This document shows, in pieces, positions 6,198 to 21,832 of a stretch of DNA of 64,000 nucleotides. The notes under the pieces are model-generated. The model had not been told where the DNA came from. It saw nothing but the letters and a program-made list of their open reading frames with translations, and ran no database searches. Source of the DNA: Vibrio chagasii (GTDB taxonomy: Bacteria > Pseudomonadota > Gammaproteobacteria > Enterobacterales > Vibrionaceae); assembly GCF_024347355.1 (NCBI RefSeq), contig NZ_AP025466.1, positions 1,116,001 through 1,180,000 on the forward strand, read 5' to 3'. The position numbers and the translations under genes are program-made. The first letter of the stretch is position 1. Each line of letters begins with the position of its first letter.

Positions 6198-8054
6198 ATG
6201 TTTTTTACTAAACGATTCTTCCCCTATTTCGTTACTCAGTGCCTTGGTGCACTGAACGACAATATCTACAAAAATATTCTCTTGCTGATGGTGACCTACA
6301 GCCAAATTGATTCACTACCGATGTCGGTCGATCTTTTTGTTAACCTTGCGGCTGGCTTATTTATTCTTCCCTTCTTTCTGTTTTCAGCTCACGCTGGTGC
6401 GATTGCCGACAACATGGACAAAGCTAAGCTAATCCGCCGCTTAAAACTTATTGAATTGGTGATCATGAGTTGTGCTGCGACGGCTATCATGACGCAGAGT
6501 GCTATCCTAATGCTGGTGCTACTCTTCATGACTGGCACTCAATCGGCTTACTTCGGCCCTGTGAAATACGCTCTACTTCCTCAAGCGCTAAAATCGGATG
6601 ATCTAGTGAAAGGTAATGCTTGGGTTGAGATTGGGACTTTCCTTTCTATCCTGATTGGTACATTAAGCGCAGGTCTTCTGCTTGCAGTTCCAAACGGCAT
6701 GATTATCGCCTCTTGCATTGTAATTACGCTTTCACTTCTAGGCTTTTTAAGCAGCGCTAACATCCCTTCTCTGCCAAGTAAGAAAAGTGACAAAGTAAAA
6801 TTAGAACCTATTACTGGTTTGAAGAAAACACTCAAACTGGCACAAAAACAACGCGGTATTTGGATGTCTATTCTCGCGATCAGTTGGTTCTGGTTTATGG
6901 GTGCGACTTACCTAACTCAATTCCCAAATTTTGCTCGTGAACACCTATTTGCAGACAGCACTGTGGTTTCTCTATTGTTGGCTCTGTTCTCAGTGGGTAT
7001 CGCAACAGGTTCATGGTTGTGTGAAAAGCTGTCTTTCAATCAAGTTGAACTGGGTATTCTACCATTTGGTATTTTGGGCTTAACGATTTTCAGTGCCGAC
7101 CTTTTATGGGCAGTGCCTGCAATCGAATCTTTCCCAAGCCAATATTACGATGTACAAAGCTTTGTTGCTCAGTCTTCGCATATTAGAGTGATGATCGACT
7201 TGTTCTTGGTAGGTGTGAGCGGAGGTGTATTTATTGTTCCCCTTTATGCGTTTATCCAATCGCGCTCAGAAGAAGGCGAATGTGCTCAATCTATTGCGGC
7301 AAACAACATCATGAACGCACTGTTTATGGTCGCTTCCGCTGCTGTTTCTATCTTGGTGTTAAGTGTTTTTGAGTTCTCTATTGTTGAGCTATTTGCGATT
7401 TTGGCCGTCGGTAACTTCATCGTAGCCATCTATGTTTACCGTCAAGTACCTGAGTTTACTCAGCGCTTTATTAGCTACTTGCTAAGCCACTGCCTGTACC
7501 GAGTTTCGGTAACCGGTCGTCAGCATATCCCGGAGCAAGGCGCTGCCCTGATTGTGGCAAACCATGTAAGCTATGTGGACGCTTTGATTCTAATGGGTAC
7601 ATCAACCCGCCCTGTTCGATTCGTGATGGACAAGTCAATCAGTGAGCTACCTGTTCTTAAACACGTTTTTCGTCATGCTGGAGTTATCCCAATCTGCTCT
7701 CCACGCAAATGTGCAGAGACTTACAAAAGAGCTTTCGAACAGATTGAGCAAGCGTTTAGTAATGATGAAGTAGTTTGTCTCTTCCCTGAAGGTCGTTTGA
7801 CCTCAAATGGTGAACTGGGCGAGTTCAGACCCGGTGTTGAGAAGATTTTAAAGAGAAAACCTGTACCCGTGATTCCAATGGCGTTAAAGGGCTTATGGGG
7901 CTCTTTCTTCAGCCATAAAAATGGACACGCGTTGACTAAGCGCCCGACTCGTTTTTGGTCTCGTATCGAAGTCAATATTGGTGAGCTATTACAACCAACC
8001 ACGTTAGATCGCCATTTGTTACAAAAAGAAGTGCATGATTTGCTAATTCGCTGA
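6198..8054 (+). CDS. LplT-like MFS transporter fused to PlsC-type acyltransferase
   Basis: Predicted 618-aa inner-membrane fusion. Residues about 1-415 are a 12-helix MFS module like LplT (FFPYFVTQCLGALNDN at the start), which flips lysophospholipids inward. Residues about 430-618 are a glycerophospholipid acyltransferase: HX4D motif NHVSYVDA near 455 and FPEGRLTSNG near 530, the catalytic and substrate-binding signatures of the PlsC/Aas family. Together they would import and re-acylate lysophospholipid. In E. coli LplT and Aas are separate proteins; here the acyl-ACP synthetase domain of Aas is missing, so activated acyl groups must come from elsewhere. It stands alone, 180 bp after the upstream gene. 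Confidence 0.88.
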   Translation: MFFTKRFFPYFVTQCLGALNDNIYKNILLLMVTYSQIDSLPMSVDLFVNLAAGLFILPFFLFSAHAGAIADNMDKAKLIRRLKLIELVIMSCAATAIMTQSAILMLVLLFMTGTQSAYFGPVKYALLPQALKSDDLVKGNAWVEIGTFLSILIGTLSAGLLLAVPNGMIIASCIVITLSLLGFLSSANIPSLPSKKSDKVKLEPITGLKKTLKLAQKQRGIWMSILAISWFWFMGATYLTQFPNFAREHLFADSTVVSLLLALFSVGIATGSWLCEKLSFNQVELGILPFGILGLTIFSADLLWAVPAIESFPSQYYDVQSFVAQSSHIRVMIDLFLVGVSGGVFIVPLYAFIQSRSEEGECAQSIAANNIMNALFMVASAAVSILVLSVFEFSIVELFAILAVGNFIVAIYVYRQVPEFTQRFISYLLSHCLYRVSVTGRQHIPEQGAALIVANHVSYVDALILMGTSTRPVRFVMDKSISELPVLKHVFRHAGVIPICSPRKCAETYKRAFEQIEQAFSNDEVVCLFPEGRLTSNGELGEFRPGVEKILKRKPVPVIPMALKGLWGSFFSHKNGHALTKRPTRFWSRIEVNIGELLQPTTLDRHLLQKEVHDLLIR

Positions 8055-10489: not shown

Positions 10490-11860
10490 TTATAACACTA
10501 GCGTTTTAGTAACAGACATTTCTCTTATCGCATACTTTATTCCTTCTCGACCAATACCACTATTCTTCACTCCTCCGAATGGAAAGTGCTCTGCTCTAAA
10601 TCCAGGACCGTCATTCACCGCAAGAGTCCCCACATCTAGCTCATCGAACAACCTATTTATTGTTCTCAAGTCATGAGTAAATACACCAGCCTGAAGACCA
10701 TAATCACTACTATTGATAACAGGAATAATCTCATCGATAGACGCAAACTCACGCAATGGAATAACCGGGCCAAACACTTCCTCTGTCATCACTGGGCTAT
10801 CATCTGGCACATTCTCTAATATGGTCGGAAAAACAATATTGCCTTCTCTTTGTCCACCAAGAACAATGTGGGCACCCATTTTCACACTTTGATCAATCAC
10901 ATCTTGTATTTGAATAGCGGATTGCTCGTTGACAAGCGGCCCGACAAAAGTCGCTTCTTTAGCAGGATCACCTACAACAAGCTCACTGCTCGCGCTCAAC
11001 AGTGAGTCACGAAATTCATTATATATGTCTTGGTGGACAAACAAACGTTTCGCAGCAGTACAGCGCTGACCTGCCGTAGCAAAACGCTGTTGAATAGCAG
11101 CATTAACCGCAGCTTCAAGATCTGCATCAGGCATGACAATGAGTGGATCACTGCCTCCTAATTCAAACAGCATTTTTTTATAACCTGCGTGGGCAGCGAT
11201 AGCTTCAGCCGCTGGATGACCTCCGGTGAAGTTCACCGCATTAACGTCTGGATGACTCACTAGCCCAGCCATTTGATCAATATCTGGCACAAGAAGCTGC
11301 AGCACTTCTTTTGGGATGCCCGCTTCGTAGCAAAGCTCGACCAACTTTGCTGCTGAACCATGGTTAATCGGTGCTGGTTTAAAAATAATCCGGTTGCCTG
11401 CAGCAAAAGCTGGGCCAATTTTGTGCATTGCTATATTAATAGGGAAATTAAAAGGTGTAATACATAGCACGGTACCGATAGGAGTGTAACGAACAACACC
11501 AGTTTTGCCTCTCGCAGGTGCATAGGCATCAGAGTCCAGCACTTCACCTTGGATTTGACGTGCTTCTTCACTGCAAGCAATGGTGGTATTAATAGCACGC
11601 GTCAACTCGATTCGGCTATCTGCGATCGTTTTTCCTGTTTCTTGCGTTATCATTGATGCTAAAGATTCAGCATGGGTTTCTAATAAACCCGCTAATTTAC
11701 GCAAAATATCAGAACGCTGAAAAGCCCTTAGCTTCGACTGTACTTCACGCCCCTCATGAAGGATGGCAAAACAATTTGCAATTTCTTCTTTTGAACTAAA
11801 GTGAAATTGACCAATGCTCTCTTGTGTATAAGGGTTTTTTACCTGATAAGCCAATGTCAT
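10490..11860 (-). CDS. safD: aldehyde dehydrogenase, probable sulfoacetaldehyde dehydrogenase (SafD-like)
   Basis: Predicted 456-aa NAD(P)-dependent aldehyde dehydrogenase, complete. Visible features are TPFNFPINIAMHKIGPA, the Rossmann NFTGG loop, the general base Glu in FELGGSDP (about 230) and the nucleophile Cys in AGQRCTAAKR (about 265), then EEVFGPV and NSGIGREG. Sequence alone would only say ALDH. The assignment rests on context: it follows a TauE/SafE exporter gene by 17 bp in one operon and is divergent from a taurine-type aminotransferase. In Neptuniibacter caesariensis SafD oxidises sulfoacetaldehyde from taurine to sulfoacetate, which SafE exports. A succinate-semialdehyde or other aldehyde substrate is the alternative. 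Confidence 0.7.
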   Translation of the reverse strand: MTLAYQVKNPYTQESIGQFHFSSKEEIANCFAILHEGREVQSKLRAFQRSDILRKLAGLLETHAESLASMITQETGKTIADSRIELTRAINTTIACSEEARQIQGEVLDSDAYAPARGKTGVVRYTPIGTVLCITPFNFPINIAMHKIGPAFAAGNRIIFKPAPINHGSAAKLVELCYEAGIPKEVLQLLVPDIDQMAGLVSHPDVNAVNFTGGHPAAEAIAAHAGYKKMLFELGGSDPLIVMPDADLEAAVNAAIQQRFATAGQRCTAAKRLFVHQDIYNEFRDSLLSASSELVVGDPAKEATFVGPLVNEQSAIQIQDVIDQSVKMGAHIVLGGQREGNIVFPTILENVPDDSPVMTEEVFGPVIPLREFASIDEIIPVINSSDYGLQAGVFTHDLRTINRLFDELDVGTLAVNDGPGFRAEHFPFGGVKNSGIGREGIKYAIREMSVTKTLVL

Positions 11861-11877
11861 AAGTCTTTCCTATTATT

Positions 11878-12633
11878 CTAGTTAAGGTGTATTGTGATAA
11901 TTTGATAGGCCAATTGCCCGCCAGATATTAGCAGTGCCCACCACATCAAACGTAAAAATAAGGCTGTGTTTACCTTAGTCAGTAGAAACACTCCTAGCTT
12001 TGTTGCTAAAAATGCAGCCAGAGCAAAAATTACAATCAGCCCCGCATTGTCAGAGAATGAAAAGCCAAGATAGAGAAATGCCGGTATTTTGGTTAAGTGG
12101 ACAAGAAGCTGCATGATAGACTTGTTGGCAACAATACTTTCCTTTGACAAATCATCACGCATGAAAAATGCCGTAAGCAAAGGGTCAACTGCACCCGCTA
12201 TAATTCCTAAACTTCCTGCTGCCAACCCTACCCAAAAAAAACTCCGATCTTTTATCTTTAACATCGGCAGTTTTTTGGGTTTAAACAATGTATAAGCAAT
12301 CAGTATTAGTAATAGATATAAGGCAAACAAATCACTTACTAGCTCAACCAGCAATCTGGTCGTCAACGCAGCACCGATCAAAGCACCAATACAAAATGGT
12401 ATGCACATTTTGGAAGAAACTTCACGGCGCAATAACCAAGCACGAATGCCATTCCCCACAATCTGAATGGATGCATGAATTGCAATTAATGGCCTCACGG
12501 GAATGAATACACTCATGCCAGTGAACATCAAGATACCACCAGCACTCCCTGTCAAACTCGATAGCACAGAAGCTAAAACCACCACCAAGGTGGTTAAAGC
12601 TAGGGTTGTGGTTGACAGAGAAATAACGTCCAT
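11878..12633 (-). CDS. safE: TauE/SafE-family sulfonate exporter
   Basis: Predicted 251-aa inner-membrane protein with about eight hydrophobic segments and the two related halves of the TauE/SafE (DUF81) family: LASVLSSLTGSAGGILMF near the N-terminus and GLAAGSLGIIAGAVDPLLTAF in the middle, each with the family's Gly-rich motif. It is the first gene of a two-gene minus-strand operon with the safD-like dehydrogenase. Family members export sulfoacetate, sulfolactate or sulfite; the adjacent aldehyde dehydrogenase and taurine-type aminotransferase favour sulfoacetate. Direct repeats at 12730-12761 upstream may bind the MocR regulator. Confidence 0.75.
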   Translation of the reverse strand: MDVISLSTTTLALTTLVVVLASVLSSLTGSAGGILMFTGMSVFIPVRPLIAIHASIQIVGNGIRAWLLRREVSSKMCIPFCIGALIGAALTTRLLVELVSDLFALYLLLILIAYTLFKPKKLPMLKIKDRSFFWVGLAAGSLGIIAGAVDPLLTAFFMRDDLSKESIVANKSIMQLLVHLTKIPAFLYLGFSFSDNAGLIVIFALAAFLATKLGVFLLTKVNTALFLRLMWWALLISGGQLAYQIITIHLN

Positions 12634-12729
12634 TGCTTGTTTTACTACCCAGTCATAAACAGAACCATTAATGTAGGTGACCTAACCCATTGAGCGTAGA
12701 GCCAACAAGCATTTTTTTTGGTACCAGAA

Positions 12730-12761
12730 CTGGACTTAAAACTATCCACATCTGGCTCTAC
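12730..12761 (+). promoter_or_regulatory. candidate TauR direct repeats between safE and tpa
   Basis: CTGGACTTAA (12730-12739) and CTGGCTCTAC (12752-12761) are spaced 22 bp start to start in the divergent promoter region. The first is identical to the CTGGACYTAA repeat described for TauR of Rhodobacter capsulatus, as I recall it. A matching pair at 15795 and 15818 precedes the transporter and regulator genes. Confidence 0.55.
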
Positions 12762-12902
12762 TCAACTCGTCACATTGATCTGTAAACTTTATTCACACGC
12801 ACAACACCTTAACTAAGCAGTGGTGAGTTAACCTGACCTAATGGTTCATTCATCGAGTATCAAAGTTAAGCCGTTATAAAAAGTAGTAATCTTAAGGAGC
12901 TG

Positions 12903-14288
12903 ATGATGAAGGACATGGATATTCAATCACTGGTTGACAGCAACAATGAACACGTCTGGCACCATATGAAGCCACACCAAGCTACGCCTATGATGATCGA
13001 AAAAGGCCAAGGTATGTATGTCTGGGATGTCCACGGCAAACAATACTTAGATGCTGTCTCGGGTGGCGTTTGGTGTGTCAATGTTGGCTACGGCCGCGAA
13101 GAGATCGCGAATGCCGTTAGAGACCAATTAGTGACTATGAACTACTTTGCTCAAACCGCTGGTAACCTGCCCGCTGGGCGCTTTGCCAAAAAGCTCCTTG
13201 AGAAAATGCCCGGACTAAGCCGCGTTTATTACTCAAATTCTGGTTCTGAGGCCAACGAGAAAGCATTTAAACTAGTAAGGCAAATTGCTGCAAAAAAATA
13301 TGGCGGAAAAAAGTACAAGATACTTTATCGCGAGCGCGACTATCATGGCACAACGATTACGTGCTTAAGCGCAACAGGCCAAGAAGAAAGGCGCGATCAA
13401 TACGGGCCATTTACTCCTGGATTTGTTAGCGTACCTCACTGCTGTGAGTATCGTTCTCAATGGGGCGAAATGGAAGATTATGGTCTTAAAGCCGCCGATG
13501 AAATTGAAAAAGTAATACTGAGAGAGGGACCTGATACCGTTGGCGCTATTTGCCTTGAGCCTATTACGGCAGGAGGCGGTGTTATTGAGCCACCAATTGG
13601 CTACTGGCAACGTGTACAAGAAATATGTCACCAATATGATGTACTACTGCACATCGATGAAGTCGTATGTGGCCTTGGCCGAACTGGTAAGTGGTTTGGC
13701 TATCAGCATTACGGCATACAGCCTGATATCGTCACTATGGCTAAAGGTGTTGCATCAGGTTATGCCGCTATCTCATGCACGGTAACCACGGAGCGTATTT
13801 ATCAATTGATCCATGATCAAGATACAACCAGTCGTATGGATTTTTTCCGCGACATTTCTACGTTTGGTGGTTGTACTGCAGGGCCTGTCGCTGCACTAGC
13901 TAATCTAGAGATCATAGAAAGAGAAAGCTTGGTCGAAAATGCACGGATACAAGGCGAATACCTGAAAGAAAAGATGCTTGAGTTACAGAAAAAACACCCC
14001 ATTGTCGGTGATGTACGTGGTAAAGGTCTCTTCGTCGGCCTCGAGATTGTAACAGACAAAGAAACCAAGCAACCTGTTGATGAGAGTATAAGTGCTGCCA
14101 TTGCGGCTAACTGCCTAAAACAAGGCGTTATTATTGGCAGAACGAATCGCTCATTCCAGACACTCAATAACACCTTGTGTTTGAGTCCTGCGCTTATTAC
14201 TCAGCAATACGAGATCGACCTGATAGCACAAGCAATCGACAAAGCACTGACAGAAGTAGAAGAGAAGATACTCACGCCAGCGTTGTAG
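12903..14288 (+). CDS. tpa: taurine:pyruvate aminotransferase (class III, PLP)
   Basis: Predicted 461-aa class III aminotransferase, full length. It has GGVWCVNVGYGREEIANA near the N-terminus, the PLP-phosphate loop SNSGSEANEKAFKL (about 113-126), YHGTT, HIDEVVCGLGRTGKWFG with the pyridine-binding Asp, and the Schiff-base Lys in TMAKGVASG (about 283). The N-terminal region and overall pattern resemble Tpa enzymes, which convert taurine and pyruvate to sulfoacetaldehyde and L-alanine. Neighbours support this: divergent safE-safD and an adjacent MocR/TauR regulator. The substrate could instead be another omega-amino acid. Its 3' end overlaps the convergent regulator gene by 17 bp. AAGGAG sits 6-7 nt before the start. 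Confidence 0.75.
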   Translation: MMKDMDIQSLVDSNNEHVWHHMKPHQATPMMIEKGQGMYVWDVHGKQYLDAVSGGVWCVNVGYGREEIANAVRDQLVTMNYFAQTAGNLPAGRFAKKLLEKMPGLSRVYYSNSGSEANEKAFKLVRQIAAKKYGGKKYKILYRERDYHGTTITCLSATGQEERRDQYGPFTPGFVSVPHCCEYRSQWGEMEDYGLKAADEIEKVILREGPDTVGAICLEPITAGGGVIEPPIGYWQRVQEICHQYDVLLHIDEVVCGLGRTGKWFGYQHYGIQPDIVTMAKGVASGYAAISCTVTTERIYQLIHDQDTTSRMDFFRDISTFGGCTAGPVAALANLEIIERESLVENARIQGEYLKEKMLELQKKHPIVGDVRGKGLFVGLEIVTDKETKQPVDESISAAIAANCLKQGVIIGRTNRSFQTLNNTLCLSPALITQQYEIDLIAQAIDKALTEVEEKILTPAL

Positions 14289-15762
14289 TCGAAAGCACTT
14301 GCTCAACCGCATACGATAAAAGACGGACTCCATCTCGAATACGGTCCGTCTTTATCAGAGAAAACCCCAACCTGAAATATCGGCTTGCCTCATATTCGTT
14401 ATTGGACAGTTGATGAAAGTGCTGTATTCCAGTCTCGATATACACACCATGTTTCAACGCTTCTCTTTGTAAACGGACACAGTCTAAATCTGGAGCTCCT
14501 TTAAGCCAAATCGCACTTCCGCCTAATGATGGTGTTAATTCCACGCTAGGAAGAAACTCTTGTAAGGCTGTTTTTAGCACCTCATAGCGCTCAGAATATC
14601 TAAGCGTCAGTCTGTGTACTAAAGTATCGTGGTACCCGCCAGCTAGAAAAAGTGCTAATGCGCGTTGATTATTCGATGGAGTGTGACGCATCATTAATCG
14701 CCGCAGCGCACGAGCTTCACGTATTAAGGCTTCTGGCCCAACCAAGTAGCCAACTCTCAAGCCCGGAGCAAGTGTTTTTGACAAACTACCTATATAAATG
14801 ACCCGACCTTCATTATCTAGACTCTTCAGTGCCGGAGTTGGCGCTGAATGAAAATTAAGCTCGCATTCGTAATCATCTTCGATAAGCACAAGATCATGGT
14901 CAGCCGCTTTTTGCAACAGCTTAAGGCGACGCTCAAGCGGCATGGTGACAGTTGTAGGTGATTGATGGCTGGGCGTTACAAATACATAGTCACAACCATC
15001 AATCTTTTGGTTCACGACCAACCCACCTTCATCTACGTCCAACTCACGAAGTTGTGTTTGGTTAAGATCAAAAATGTGACGAACATCGGAATAACCGGGA
15101 GTCTCTAACCCGAGACAAGCGTGATCGCCTCCGAGCAATTGACTCAGTAGATATAATGAATGCTGGGTACCCACCGTAAGCAAGATCTCATTTTTGTTAC
15201 AACGAACTCCTCGGCGAGCAAGAATACGAGTCCTAAGTTGATCAATTAATAACGAGTCATCTTCATCGAAACGGTCTTGAAGCCACTCTTTTGCATGCAA
15301 AGTCTGTGCAGCTCGCTGAGAGCACTCGCGCCATTCCCTAACAGGAAAAAAATCAGGGTCAGGTTGCCCATAAATAAATGGGTATTCACACTGTTTCCAA
15401 GCATCCGGTTTATAAAAAAGATGTTGCTCAGACGGCATCAGTTTAAGCTTATTATCCCAATTAACATTCGATCCTCTTGACGGTAAAGAGGAGTGACTTG
15501 CCACTAGATTCTCGTCATAAGTAGAGTGGACGAAGAATCCTTTTCTCTCTTTGGCAATTGCATACCCTTCCTCAATCAGCCTCTCATAAGCAAGAACCAC
15601 AGTATTACGGGAAACTCCAAGCGTTTTTGCTAGCTCTCGACATGAAGGTAATGGTGCACCTGAACTAATGTGACCATCGAGAATGCTGGAGGTGATCATA
15701 TTCTTAATCTGAGTTTGTAGACTGGCACCTTCGTCAAACTCCATGTAAAACAAATGTTTCAT
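14272..15762 (-). CDS. tauR: MocR/TauR-type regulator (GntR HTH + aminotransferase fold)
   Basis: Predicted 496-aa MocR-family regulator. Residues about 10-80 are a GntR winged helix (SSGAPLPSCRELAKTLGVSRNTVVLAYERLIEEGY). Residues about 120-490 are a class I aminotransferase fold that binds PLP through the Lys in IYIGSLSKTLAPGLRVG (about 320). In the TauR/GabR group the amine substrate bound with PLP triggers activation of uptake and transaminase genes. It is divergent from the AGCS symporter and convergent with tpa, so it probably controls both and the safED operon; CTGG-type direct repeats occur in both intergenic regions. Confidence 0.8.
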   Translation of the reverse strand: MKHLFYMEFDEGASLQTQIKNMITSSILDGHISSGAPLPSCRELAKTLGVSRNTVVLAYERLIEEGYAIAKERKGFFVHSTYDENLVASHSSLPSRGSNVNWDNKLKLMPSEQHLFYKPDAWKQCEYPFIYGQPDPDFFPVREWRECSQRAAQTLHAKEWLQDRFDEDDSLLIDQLRTRILARRGVRCNKNEILLTVGTQHSLYLLSQLLGGDHACLGLETPGYSDVRHIFDLNQTQLRELDVDEGGLVVNQKIDGCDYVFVTPSHQSPTTVTMPLERRLKLLQKAADHDLVLIEDDYECELNFHSAPTPALKSLDNEGRVIYIGSLSKTLAPGLRVGYLVGPEALIREARALRRLMMRHTPSNNQRALALFLAGGYHDTLVHRLTLRYSERYEVLKTALQEFLPSVELTPSLGGSAIWLKGAPDLDCVRLQREALKHGVYIETGIQHFHQLSNNEYEASRYFRLGFSLIKTDRIRDGVRLLSYAVEQVLSTTTLA

Positions 15763-15794
15763 TTTATTATAACTATCAACAATTTAGCAACTTA

Positions 15795-15827
15795 CTGGCC
15801 CCATTTTTAACATACTTCTGGCTCTAA
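15795..15827 (+). promoter_or_regulatory. candidate TauR direct repeats between tauR and the AGCS symporter
   Basis: CTGGCCCCAT (15795) and CTGGCTCTAA (15818) are spaced 23 bp start to start, nearly the same spacing as the pair at 12730/12752. The location is the 127-bp divergent promoter of the regulator and symporter genes. Confidence 0.5.
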
Positions 15828-15889
15828 TAGTATTCGGATCTTTTATCTAAGATGAATCCTATGCCGTTAATAACGCAGGACTTTAAGCA

Positions 15890-17497
15890 ATGCATCTACA
15901 TCCACTTAATCAAGCCTTTCGAGTGCTAGCTTGGTTTGTACCATTAAGTTTGTCTTCTCCCGCTTTGGCCACAAACTCTGCTCAAGCACTTAACTTTGAT
16001 CAGCAAGTCAATTCCATCATTTCTCCTATCGCACACCAACTCTCTTCAATCGTTTTCTACAAAATAAACTTATTCGGTTACTCAGTGCCCATCATTGTTC
16101 TCTGGCTAAGCGTTGCCGCTATTTTTTTCACCTTTTATTTGAATTTTGTTAATTTACGTGGTTTGGCAACAGCATTTCGATTAATTAGAGGCGACTACAC
16201 CAACCCAAGAGCAACGGGGGAAATTTCTCACTTTCAAGCTGTTGCCACTGCAATATCAGGGACCGTCGGGATTGGTAATATTGGTGGCGTCGCCGTAGCA
16301 ATCACTATTGGCGGACCAGGCGCAACTTTCTGGCTTATCATGGCTGGCTTTCTCAGTATGTCGACCAAGCTGGTTGAGTGTACTTTGGGTGTAAAGTACC
16401 GAAAAGTAAATCCAGATGGCAGTATTTCAGGTGGCCCTATGTACTACCTTGAGCATTATTTAAAAAGTCGTAACTACCCGACTTTAGGTAAATGTTTAGG
16501 AAGCTTTTATGCACTTGCTCTTGTTATTGGGTGCTTAGGAATTGGCAACATGTTCCAATCAAATCAAGCCTATTCACAGTTACTGGTTATCACAGGAGAA
16601 AGCCAAAGCTTCTTTGCCGATAAAGGTTGGCTGTTTGGTTTGATTATGGCGGTGCTAGTAGCTCTAGTCATTCTTGGAGGTATCAGTTCCATCGCTAAGG
16701 TAACCGCCAAACTTGTTCCGATCATGGCTATTCTCTATGTGATTTCTGCCTGCATTATTCTTATCAAAAGCGTAGAGCACTTACCAAGTGCTGTATCACT
16801 CATATTCTTACACGCTTTTAGCCTAGAAAGTGCCACTGGTGGTGCAATTGGAGCCATCATAGTTGGATTCCAACGGGCCGTATTCTCTAATGAAGCCGGA
16901 ATAGGCTCATCATCCATTGCCCACTCGGCGGTACAAACAGAGGAACCAGCTTCTGAAGGCCTAGTCTCCTTGTTTGAACCACTGATTGACACCGTTGTTA
17001 TTTGTACTCTGAGCGCCCTGGTGGTGATTTCTACTGCTTATCCAGCCGGTCTGATTAATGGTGACCTTGTCGGTATTGAATTAACTTCGGCTGTCTTTGC
17101 ACATCATTTTACTTGGGCCCCTTATCCACTAGCAATTGCAGCTCTGTTATTTGCTTTTTCAACTACCATTGCATGGTCATACTATGGGTTGAAGGGGTGG
17201 ACGTATCTCTTCGGTGAGAAGCGTCACTCAAAATTTTTATTCAAACTTATGTTCTGTTGCTTTGTTGCTCTAGGCAGCATGCTCCATCTCGATGCTGTAC
17301 TGATGTTCTCTGATGCCCTAGTATTTCTAATTGCGTTGCCTAACGTCATCGGTCTTTATTTGTTTGCCCCGTTAGTTAAACACGAAGTCGAAGACTATCT
17401 AAACCGAATTAAGCTTGGAGAGATCATAAATTACCGTCTTCTAGGCAATAGCCTAGATGATCAACCAAGCCATAAAACTATGACATCATCTGACTAA
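15890..17497 (+). CDS. AGCS-family sodium:amino acid symporter
   Basis: Predicted 535-aa inner-membrane Na+/alanine-glycine-type symporter, complete, with about 11 transmembrane segments. Family hallmarks are AISGTVGIGNIGGVAVAITIGGPGATFW (Gly-rich helix, about 120-147), PDGSISGGPMYYLE, and FSNEAGIGSSSIAHS (about 340). The first 28 residues are hydrophobic and end ALATNS, resembling a cleavable signal. In the taurine cluster it may import taurine with sodium, a role usually filled by TauABC or TRAP systems in known pathways, or take up the alanine formed by Tpa. This is inferred from position only. Confidence 0.82.
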   Translation: MHLHPLNQAFRVLAWFVPLSLSSPALATNSAQALNFDQQVNSIISPIAHQLSSIVFYKINLFGYSVPIIVLWLSVAAIFFTFYLNFVNLRGLATAFRLIRGDYTNPRATGEISHFQAVATAISGTVGIGNIGGVAVAITIGGPGATFWLIMAGFLSMSTKLVECTLGVKYRKVNPDGSISGGPMYYLEHYLKSRNYPTLGKCLGSFYALALVIGCLGIGNMFQSNQAYSQLLVITGESQSFFADKGWLFGLIMAVLVALVILGGISSIAKVTAKLVPIMAILYVISACIILIKSVEHLPSAVSLIFLHAFSLESATGGAIGAIIVGFQRAVFSNEAGIGSSSIAHSAVQTEEPASEGLVSLFEPLIDTVVICTLSALVVISTAYPAGLINGDLVGIELTSAVFAHHFTWAPYPLAIAALLFAFSTTIAWSYYGLKGWTYLFGEKRHSKFLFKLMFCCFVALGSMLHLDAVLMFSDALVFLIALPNVIGLYLFAPLVKHEVEDYLNRIKLGEIINYRLLGNSLDDQPSHKTMTSSD

Positions 17498-20329: not shown

Positions 20330-21832
20330 CTGTCTCTTGATCACAAGTCTGGTTAATCAAGAGACTTGGCGAGTTCATACCCTTCAAGGATGGTTTGTAA
20401 CCTAAGCCATCCTTGCCATAACGTCTTTATAGAAGCGCGACCTGTTCGCTTGGTATTCTTCCAACCACCTAACCGAGCAATACCGTTGTAAGCCCATGAT
20501 ATATTAGGCGCTTCTTTCGGTAGTTTTTTGCTCTCCAACTTGAGCCACATTAACTTCCACGCTTTGCCTTTTAATACCTGCTCACAACTGCTCTTAGATA
20601 ACTCGTCTGATTCATTCATAAACCTCAACTGGAGTAACCGAGTCGCGATAAAAGCCAAAACGACGCTGAGCCTTTCTAAGTTATCCTTACTTTGCATTCT
20701 CAGTTGCTCAACTTCAGTCCCTTCACTTTTCCAGACTTTATGAAAATCTTCTATCAGCCAGCGCCGCTCATAATAACTGACGATTTTGAGTGCCTCTTCC
20801 TTGCTCGTTATCGGCTCTGAAGTCAGTAAGTGCCATGCGAGCTTATTACCACTCTCTCCTTGTTCTATACATCCCACGTAGTAAAGCGGAATGTTATCGA
20901 ACTCTTTCTTGTTAGCAGGAGACTTGAGTGTCACGGGGGCATATTTGATATCTAAATGAGCCTTGCGAGCTTTACGACCGCCTTTTTGCGGTATTTCGAG
21001 CACTTTCTCTCCGGCTGATAACAGGGTAGAAGCATAGCTATAAAGACGATTATCGTGCTCTTCAATACAGCGGCTTTGCATTGAGCGAACGAGGAACCTT
21101 TGTTGTTGCTCTCGCTTGTAAGTGAGGTATTCAAATAGGTCGGCTTCTCTATCGCACACAGAAATGACATCCGAAATTTTATCGCCAAGTCGCTCAGCGA
21201 CATGGCGAGAGGCTTGTTCCCACTTATAACTTTCTTTCTCTTTGTATGGTCGAGTCGCATGCTGGTGCCTTTGACCTCGCTTTTCTATATCACGAGTCCA
21301 GCGCTGTTGTTCAATTAAACCAATAACAGATTGAGTGTCGGGAGCAAAAAGTAAGGTTGAGTGTACAAACATGGCGCGATGTCGATTGCCTTGATTAGAG
21401 TGCCCGAGTTCATCTCGAATGCTGCGATGGGAGTAACTGAGAGAAGTGGTGTCTTCTAAGGCAAGAAGTGTTTGTTGCTCTAATGCTTCTTGTGCGGTGA
21501 CATAAAAACCCGCTTCTGCGATATCTTCTGCTTTGATTTGCTCATTACGGATGAAGCGATAAGCCCCTTCCATTTCAGCAGGGGATATAATGAGTTTCGA
21601 GACGGGTACGCCAGGCTGCTCGGCCAGTGAGGCTGCGAGAGCAACGAGTCTTTGAGTGCGTCTAGGGTCATTAAGGTGGGCTTGACCGAACTGTTTTTGT
21701 GCCCAAAGGGTTGGCTCTATATAGGTCATGATAATCATCCTTGTCATTGCTTAGATGATCAGATCATGAAACCTAAAAATAGTTCAAAAAAAATCCCCAA
21801 GCGTGGCTTAGGGATTTGTGTATAAGAGACAG
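20330..21832 (-). mobile_element. IS50/Tn5-like insertion sequence (IS4 superfamily), intact
   Basis: A 1503-bp element. The left end CTGTCTCTTGATCACAAGT (20330-20348) and right end CTGTCTCTTATACACAAAT (21814-21832, complement) are 19-bp imperfect inverted repeats, close to the IS50 inside end and Tn5 outside end respectively. Identical flanks GCCTTTTGAC at 20320-20329 and 21833-21842 form a 9-10 bp target duplication, so the insertion is recent. It carries one complete transposase gene. Confidence 0.93.
20353..21729 (-). CDS. tnp: IS4-family (Tn5-type) transposase
   Basis: Predicted 458-aa DDE transposase. Like Tn5 transposase it starts with an end-binding domain (WAQKQFGQAHLNDPRRTQRL), has the first Asp in ALEDTTSLSYS (about 90), the second in SVCDREADLFEY (about 185), and the YREK signature YERRWLIEDFHKVWK with the catalytic Glu (about 315). 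ATG at 21729 aligns with family N-termini and has AAGGA 9 nt upstream; an ATG 18 nt earlier lacks a ribosome site. No frameshift is seen, so transposition competence is likely. Confidence 0.93.
   Translation of the reverse strand: MTYIEPTLWAQKQFGQAHLNDPRRTQRLVALAASLAEQPGVPVSKLIISPAEMEGAYRFIRNEQIKAEDIAEAGFYVTAQEALEQQTLLALEDTTSLSYSHRSIRDELGHSNQGNRHRAMFVHSTLLFAPDTQSVIGLIEQQRWTRDIEKRGQRHQHATRPYKEKESYKWEQASRHVAERLGDKISDVISVCDREADLFEYLTYKREQQQRFLVRSMQSRCIEEHDNRLYSYASTLLSAGEKVLEIPQKGGRKARKAHLDIKYAPVTLKSPANKKEFDNIPLYYVGCIEQGESGNKLAWHLLTSEPITSKEEALKIVSYYERRWLIEDFHKVWKSEGTEVEQLRMQSKDNLERLSVVLAFIATRLLQLRFMNESDELSKSSCEQVLKGKAWKLMWLKLESKKLPKEAPNISWAYNGIARLGGWKNTKRTGRASIKTLWQGWLRLQTILEGYELAKSLD

What the first reader, a model, noticed from the sequence alone, without database searches (positions are those of the whole stretch)
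10490..17497. Candidate taurine-nitrogen island: Tpa, SafD, SafE, TauR and an AGCS symporter
Sequence shows a class III aminotransferase, a MocR regulator, an ALDH plus TauE/SafE exporter operon and an AGCS Na+ symporter in one block. In Neptuniibacter caesariensis Tpa, SafD and SafE release nitrogen from taurine and excrete sulfoacetate. Here the known TauABC/TRAP importer seems replaced by AGCS, a new combination as far as I know. Taurine use by the whole set is inferred.
Basis: partly seen in the sequence, partly recalled or inferred. Interest (0 to 1): 0.8.

Follow-up and report, generated by a model that had tools for sequence, protein, structure and literature searches.

The report
Taurine-nitrogen gene module with symporter
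A five-gene block in a marine Vibrio looks like a compact, conserved kit for taking nitrogen from taurine and excreting the leftover as sulfoacetate, with an unusual sodium-driven importer in place of the usual taurine transporter.

Summary
At 10490-17497 lie intact genes for SafD (NCBIfam equivalog, 816 bits, cut-off 700), a TauE/SafE-family exporter in operon with it, a class III aminotransferase, a MocR regulator and an AGCS symporter. In a tree the aminotransferase joins Tpas encoded beside xsc or tauABC (clade support 100/100); 11 other class III rows fall outside. The block is a discrete module: 8 of 227 genus genomes carry SafD, the same 8 carry this AGCS at 76% identity or more, and all 8 keep the gene order (one lacks safE) in about three chromosomal settings. 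A TauR-like paired box stands before tpa and before agcS; its distal half is nearly unchanged across the genus at both. Elsewhere AGCS adjoins safD-tpa-ald in a Cellvibrionaceae strain, safD in strain NOR5-3, and tauR-tpa in another order. TauA is not found above cut-off in the nearest genome. Best reading: Na+-coupled taurine import by AGCS, then Tpa, SafD, and sulfoacetate export by SafE, under TauR. Enzymes and regulation are well supported; AGCS substrate and exporter cargo are inferred. A new variant of the Neptuniibacter pathway.

The parts
10490..11860 (-). safD: sulfoacetaldehyde dehydrogenase (456 aa)
   Evidence: NCBIfam NF047626 SafD, 815.9 bits, cut-off 700. N138, E233 and C267 are invariant in 20 SafD rows; that these are the ALDH catalytic positions is recalled.
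11878..12633 (-). safE: TauE/SafE-family exporter (251 aa), 17 bp upstream of safD, same strand
   Evidence: Pfam PF01925 68.6 bits, cut-off 32.6. A TauE/SafE gene lies directly upstream of safD in 9 of 13 named SafD loci (L019-L025, L028, L030; in L022 cut by the contig end), not in L018, L026, L027, L029.
12697..12727 (-). TauR-like paired box pointing toward safE (CTGGTACCAA and TTGGCTCTA, starts 22 bp apart)
   Evidence: TAGAGCCA (reverse complement of the second box) identical in 9 of 9 aligned rows
12730..12760 (+). TauR-like paired box pointing toward tpa (CTGGACTTAA, N12, CTGGCTCTA)
   Evidence: Exact match to the published consensus CTGGACYTAA; CTGGACTTA in 9 of 9 rows, CTGGCTCTA in 8 of 9
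12903..14288 (+). tpa: taurine--pyruvate aminotransferase (461 aa)
   Evidence: Clade with xsc-linked and tauABC-linked Tpas, 100/100; 64% identical to the Tpa beside xsc on a Paracoccus denitrificans plasmid
14272..15762 (-). tauR: MocR/GntR regulator (496 aa), convergent with tpa, divergent from agcS
   Evidence: GntR plus aminotransferase I/II domains; 35-47% identical to unbroken MocRs next to tpa, tauABC or xsc in other lineages
15795..15826 (+). TauR-like paired box pointing toward agcS (CTGGCCCCAT, N13, CTGGCTCTA)
   Evidence: One of two exact hits of the paired pattern in the window; CTGGCTCTAA in 9 of 9 rows, first CTGG in only 3 of 9
15890..17497 (+). agcS: AGCS-family Na+ symporter (535 aa), proposed taurine importer
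   Evidence: TIGR00835 381.3 bits; aligns to MmAgcS 6cse/6csf, E 5.9e-79; found at 76% identity or more in exactly the 8 SafD-bearing genomes of 227

Best explanation
The block is a self-contained taurine-nitrogen module. AgcS brings taurine in with Na+ (inferred). Tpa moves its amino group to pyruvate, giving alanine as usable nitrogen plus sulfoacetaldehyde (by family and tree). SafD oxidises sulfoacetaldehyde to sulfoacetate with NAD(P) (by equivalog model). SafE exports sulfoacetate (by family and operon position; cargo inferred). TauR activates the promoters of safED, tpa and agcS through paired CTGG boxes (by conserved sites; binding not shown). The carbon and sulfur of taurine are discarded; only nitrogen is kept.
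For: SafD equivalog 815.9/700. Tpa clade with xsc- and tauABC-linked Tpas, 100/100. SafD in 8 of 227 genus genomes and agcS at 76% or more in exactly those 8, the next AGCS listed there being 55%; all 8 keep the order agcS-tauR-tpa-(safE)-safD in about three flanking settings. Exact paired box twice in 64 kb, before tpa and agcS, none in 100 shuffles (pattern written after seeing the sites); distal box conserved across the genus. Under a looser pair pattern, pairs stand before tpa in Oceanospirillum, O. beijerinckii, Amphritea, G030, G173 and Tritonibacter, before xsc in Tritonibacter and before tauA in G008 and G009, against 7 hits in 1.18 Mb of background loci (gene positions). AGCS beside safD or tpa in other lineages: AOL6 safE-safD-tpa-agcS-amidohydrolase-ald on one strand (L022), NOR5-3 (L018), G173 agcS-tauR-tpa. 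TauA below cut-off in G001 (24.3 of 304.25 bits) but above in G008 and G014. G001 has two further AGCS paralogues (about 48% and 37%), so an ordinary alanine carrier need not be this one.
Against: I found no experiment showing taurine transport by an AGCS protein. Residues in five AGCS motifs do not separate taurine-linked from unlinked members. AGCS is not the rule: of 13 named SafD loci at 48% identity or more it lies near in 3 (L018, L022, L028), several loci having short flanks; L018 shows neither tpa nor safE within its 10-kb flanks. The first agcS half-site is degenerate in 6 of 9 rows. The looser pair scan found nothing in 12 of 30 taurine-type loci, among them L018, L022 and the xsc-bearing P. 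denitrificans locus L099, and it has a stray hit in the window at 6814 inside another gene. The MocR passes the PdxR model, and no TauR model was among its hits. One genome lacks safE. Absence of TauA was tested in a neighbour genome, not the window's own; other importers and xsc were not searched there. The 8 Vibrio genomes share one inherited cassette, so they are not independent trials.
Confidence: 0.62

Rival explanations
1. The enzymes and exporter work on taurine as proposed, but AgcS is an alanine carrier that recaptures or balances the alanine made by Tpa, and taurine enters by another transporter encoded elsewhere.
For: The only solved AGCS relative found is a sodium/alanine symporter; alanine is the product of Tpa; in AOL6 agcS lies between tpa and ald. 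A TRAP system is the likely taurine importer in Taurinivorans muris (PMC10507020, passage), so a non-TauABC importer elsewhere is possible.
Against: G001 already has two other AGCS paralogues; no other importer lies in the module; TauA is below cut-off in the nearest genome; within the genus this AGCS is found only with safD.
Confidence: 0.2
2. The physiological substrate is hypotaurine, beta-alanine, homotaurine or another omega-amino acid, and SafD oxidises the matching aldehyde.
For: Annotated plasmid relatives, 64-67% identical (H1, H2, H3, H5, H11), bear the name 'hypotaurine--pyruvate aminotransferase Tpa'; class III aminotransferases are often promiscuous (recalled).
Against: SafD passes an equivalog model for sulfoacetaldehyde; the Tpa clade holds xsc-linked members, and Xsc acts on sulfoacetaldehyde; the two rows encoded beside methylmalonate-semialdehyde dehydrogenase fall outside it; a TauE/SafE-family exporter gene sits in operon.
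Confidence: 0.1
3. Sulfoacetaldehyde is desulfonated elsewhere in the cell (Xsc), taurine serving as carbon and sulfur source, and the TauE-type protein exports sulfite.
For: TauE of Cupriavidus is a sulfite exporter in C2-sulfonate metabolism (title of Weinitschke 2007 in a reference list).
Against: No Xsc match in the 64 kb window; safE sits in operon with safD, not xsc. Xsc elsewhere in the genome was not searched.
Confidence: 0.06

Closest known systems
Neptuniibacter caesariensis taurine-nitrogen pathway (Tpa-SafD-SafE; Krejcik et al. 2008, not read; seen as cited in PMC5289682, PMC12625764 and PMC6647121)
Isethionate-forming taurine-nitrogen clusters (Klebsiella, Chromohalobacter: TauABC, aminotransferase, IsfD, IsfE; passages of PMC6616044)
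   Same: Same logic: deaminate taurine, convert the aldehyde, export the C2 sulfonate. Vibrio relatives G008, G009, G014 and genome G030 of the same order have tauABC-tpa-tauR with an SDR and a TauE-like gene; the G014 SDR is closest to YdfG but below that model's cut-off, so IsfD there is a guess
   Different: The window oxidises (SafD) rather than reduces the aldehyde, and has AGCS rather than TauABC
TauR/Tpa/Xsc taurine dissimilation (Paracoccus denitrificans L099, Tritonibacter L101)
   Same: Homologous Tpa (63-64%) and MocR (35-40%); a similar operator in L101, none found in L099
   Different: No Xsc in the window; no desulfonation step in the module
AGCS family, MmAgcS 6cse/6csf
   Same: Family and conserved motifs
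   Different: Distinct subclade; proposed substrate taurine instead of alanine/glycine

Membership tests
SafD sulfoacetaldehyde dehydrogenase | Passes NCBIfam equivalog NF047626 cut-off (700 bits) | tested here: met
   815.9 bits, whole length
SafD sulfoacetaldehyde dehydrogenase | Oxidises sulfoacetaldehyde to sulfoacetate | not testable with these tools
   needs enzyme assay
Tpa taurine--pyruvate aminotransferase | Clusters with Tpas of known taurine clusters, apart from other omega-aminotransferases | tested here: met
   23-row clade 100/100 incl. two xsc-linked rows. Limits: the 11 outgroup rows were chosen from my hits; no assayed GABA or beta-alanine enzyme was included; the program warns of long branches
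Tpa taurine--pyruvate aminotransferase | Curated equivalog HMM | tested here: inconclusive
   Only the broad subfamily PRK07678 passed (491.2/488); no Tpa model among the 25 of 69 shown
TauR | MocR architecture (GntR + aminotransferase-like) | tested here: met
   PF00392 and PF00155
TauR | Operator of CTGGACYTAA direct repeats before taurine genes | tested here: met
   Exact copy at 12730, companion box 22 bp on, conserved. The companion departs from the consensus by 3 letters, and site and regulator were not shown to bind
PdxR (rival family for the regulator) | Passes NF052282 cut-off (320 bits) | tested here: met
   353.9 bits; but 6 of the 6 correctly read MocRs near tpa or tauABC also pass (334.8-370.0; the seventh query was a wrong-strand ORF), so the model does not discriminate
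SafE | PF01925 protein in operon with safD | tested here: met
   68.6/32.6 bits; 17 bp spacing
SafE | Exports sulfoacetate | not testable with these tools
   needs transport or mutant data
AGCS symporter | TIGR00835 and PF01235 above cut-off | tested here: met
   381.3 and 393.6 bits
AGCS symporter | Carries taurine | not testable with these tools
   genome context only
TauABC taurine importer | TauA (TIGR01729) present in the organism | tested here: not met
   nearest genome G001: 24.3 bits vs 304.25; G008 and G014 above cut-off; no match of a Vibrio TauA protein in G001. Own assembly not held

The most novel reading that the evidence does not exclude
A group of AGCS symporters are Na+-coupled taurine importers dedicated to sulfoacetate-forming nitrogen scavenging. 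They have joined tpa/safD modules in several marine gammaproteobacterial lineages, so surveys that count tauABC miss both these taurine users and a biological source of sulfoacetate.
Probability: 0.5. Interest if true: 0.66.

Novelty: new variant of a known kind. Interest (0 to 1): 0.52.

Why it matters
One study gauged potential taurine uptake across the ocean from tauA, tauB and tauC counts (PMC6647121, methods passage). An AGCS-type importer would be invisible to that. A 2025 sponge-symbiont study reports clusters that consume sulfoacetate, says it is unclear how sulfoacetate arises in the holobiont, and did not find the safD pathway in its bins (PMC12625764, passages). A Vibrio module that makes and exports sulfoacetate gives a concrete, testable producer for such cross-feeding. 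The single-gene importer also makes the module compact enough to test gene by gene.

Tried and rejected
PdxR as the regulator's identity: rejected as non-discriminating, because MocRs near tpa/tauABC score the same. One of the seven queries there, and one query (L099:9398-10885:-), was an ORF on the wrong strand; the real MocR of L099 is on the + strand.

A first Tpa tree held six outgroup rows read on the wrong strand (13-28 stops each); it was discarded and rebuilt with correct strands.

AGCS motif comparison to find taurine-specific residues: no residue in the five motifs separated linked from unlinked members. The MmAgcS structure paper is not held.

Attempts to reach Halieaceae genomes for more AGCS contexts, by order searches around G173, G255, G175 and G056, found no SafD (0 of 109 and 0 of 5) and one AGCS at 58% (1 of 48) or none at E 1e-165 (0 of 85). 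None of these searches held a genome known to be positive for SafD, so they show no absence. The one AGCS (L148) had no tpa or safD in 19.5 kb. The context of the Halieaceae-like AGCS homologues at about 70% therefore stays unknown. Three AGCS loci at 50-53% (L143-L145) had no tpa or safD near; two more (L140, L141) lie on contigs too short to tell.

The other 67, at 36-43%, were treated as other aldehyde dehydrogenases by identity alone and left out of the neighbourhood count, save L031 and L032, printed with no partner genes. No record titled Neptuniibacter was among the 80.

Co-contig inferences from equal contig lengths (17592: SafD, AGCS, Tpa; 354141: AGCS, Tpa; 19683: SafD, AGCS) were used only as hints. 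No structure prediction was run, because a fold would not settle the substrate.
Full report
What is there. One search lists five intact genes: safD 10490-11860(-), safE 11878-12633(-), tpa 12903-14288(+), a MocR gene 14272-15762(-) and agcS 15890-17497(+). safE and safD are 17 bp apart on one strand; safE and tpa diverge; tpa and the MocR gene converge with a 17-bp overlap; the MocR gene and agcS diverge. NCBIfam gives SafD 815.9 bits (cut-off 700), PRK07678 aminotransferase 491.2 (cut-off 488), PdxR-type MocR 353.9 (cut-off 320) and AGCS 381.3 (cut-off 272.65). Pfam gives TauE/SafE 68.6 (cut-off 32.6).

Host. The window's own assembly is not held; G001 is nearest (36% of sampled 31-letter words) and carries the same block at 98.8-99.8% protein identity. 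Other species names (V. sagamiensis, V. hepatarius, V. pectenicida for G521, G460, G501) are inferred likewise from equal contig lengths.

A discrete module. SafD over the cut-off was found in 1 of 369 class genomes, that one being G001, and in 8 of 227 genus genomes. All 8 hold agcS, tauR, tpa and safD in the same order; safE is between tpa and safD in 7 of 8 and missing in L124. AGCS at 76% identity or more occurs in exactly those 8 of 227; the next AGCS proteins listed in the genus are 55%. Flanking genes fall into about three settings: window, G001 and G538; four genomes (L125-L128) sharing another, with L123 sharing only its safD side; and L124 alone. In the 12 of 15 gene comparisons with finite dS, dN/dS is 0.02-0.10; dS exceeds 1 in 7 of those 12, so the ratios are rough. 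The cassette is probably inherited as one unit, so the 8 genomes are not independent trials.

Aminotransferase. In a 34-row tree the window enzyme lies in a 23-row clade (100/100) with Tpas from tauABC clusters, SafD clusters and plasmids, among them Paracoccus denitrificans (next to xsc: TIGR03457 928.4 bits, cut-off 676.4) and Tritonibacter (tpa, tauR and xsc within 8 kb). Eleven other class III rows fall outside, including two encoded beside methylmalonate-semialdehyde dehydrogenase. Identity to the xsc-linked rows is 63-64% (listing, valid for those rows). No biochemically assayed GABA or beta-alanine enzyme was in the tree, and the program warns that long branches meet between the outgroup and this clade.

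Regulation. The published TauR site is a direct repeat of CTGGACYTAA (PMC5320631: abstract, passages and taurine section seen). The only exact copy in 64 kb is at 12730, in the safE-tpa intergenic region; with two mismatches allowed the pattern is no more common than chance (94 against 88.6 expected), so only the exact copy and its conservation count. A companion CTGGCTCTA lies 22 bp on. The exact paired pattern occurs twice in the window, before tpa (12730-12760) and before agcS (15795-15826), with no hit in any of 100 shuffles; the pattern was written after seeing these sites, so that figure is not a fair p-value. Conservation is the better test: over 9 rows (window and 8 genomes) CTGGACTTA is kept in 9, CTGGCTCTA before tpa in 8, TAGAGCCA (toward safE) in 9, and CTGGCTCTAA before agcS in 9; the first half at agcS is CTGG in only 3 of 9. 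A looser pair scan of 30 taurine-type loci (gene positions) hit before tpa in Oceanospirillum, O. beijerinckii, Amphritea, G030, G173 and Tritonibacter, before xsc in Tritonibacter, before tauA in G008 and G009, and before the SDR gene in G014. It also hit inside genes (window 6814 and its G001 counterpart, L015 15103, L030 10069) and found nothing in 12 of the 30: L018, L020-L023, L025-L027, L098-L100 and L103. Background was 7 hits in 1.18 Mb of 80 other loci, which include the tpa-bearing L102.

Importer. Relatives without SafD carry tauABC beside tpa (TauA 345.6 bits). In G001 TauA scores 24.3 bits against a cut-off of 304.25, while G008 and G014 pass. AGCS recurs next to taurine genes outside Vibrio: safE-safD-tpa-agcS-amidohydrolase-ald on one strand in Cellvibrionaceae AOL6 (L022; safE cut by the contig end), agcS divergent from safD in NOR5-3 (L018, with neither tpa nor safE in the 10-kb flanks), and agcS-tauR-tpa without safD in G173 of another order (L142). 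Of the 13 named SafD loci of 48% identity or more, tpa is near in 6, a TauE/SafE gene in 9, AGCS in 3, and a TauB/TauC-like pair in 2 (L019, L020); several flanks are short. In an AGCS tree the Vibrio proteins group with P0130 (97/97), from a contig of the same length as one holding a SafD and a Tpa, inside a 19-row clade (100/99) that includes NOR5-3; the AOL6 and G173 proteins fall outside that clade, so recruitment may have happened more than once. Motif residues do not tell the substrate.

Function. The best-supported chain is taurine in (AgcS, inferred), transamination to alanine and sulfoacetaldehyde (Tpa, by clade), oxidation to sulfoacetate (SafD, by equivalog), export (SafE, inferred), under TauR (by conserved operator). 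The main rival keeps the enzymes but makes AgcS an alanine carrier.

Literature. Ten searches were run, nine on taurine and one on AgcS. Three gave no paper. Of the others I saw the listed part only: 20 of 11,912, 20 of 41, 16 of 16, 3 of 3, 20 of 84, 1 of 1 and 8 of 63. No title or abstract start there names AGCS as a taurine importer; the single paper lists a sodium:alanine symporter gene among responding transporters, not tied to taurine in the passages shown. The library holds open-licence papers only, so this does not show that nothing is in print. Passages only were seen of PMC5289682, PMC8667426, PMC10507020, PMC6616044, PMC9870897, PMC12625764 and PMC6647121. The Neptuniibacter paper itself was not read.

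Verdict. It is a new variant of a known pathway.

Noticed in passing
L124 (G521, inferred V. sagamiensis) 7428-7769: The block lacks safE; safD is directly divergent from tpa, and no TauE/SafE match was found in the 17 kb fetched. How sulfoacetate leaves this strain is open.
   Followed up: partly
L022:4713-6512: In Cellvibrionaceae AOL6 an Amidohydro_3 protein lies between agcS and ald on the same strand; it might release taurine from an N-acyl form (speculation).
   Followed up: partly
L025, L026, L029: SafD-like genes at 48-54% identity in MAGs labelled Kofleriaceae, Bacteriovoracaceae and Actinomycetota; L025 also has a TauE/SafE gene (37%) just upstream.
   Followed up: no
window 20353-21747: Transposase gene with a Tnp_DNA_bind domain, about 3 kb beyond the block.
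   Followed up: no
L024 18521-20031: The MocR gene beside tpa in Oceanospirillum beijerinckii matches as two separate pieces, as if frameshifted.
   Followed up: no
window 21712, 23229, 25798, 27525, 59819: Five further TGGCTCTA copies; 8 in all against 1.6 expected in shuffles. Unexplained.
   Followed up: no
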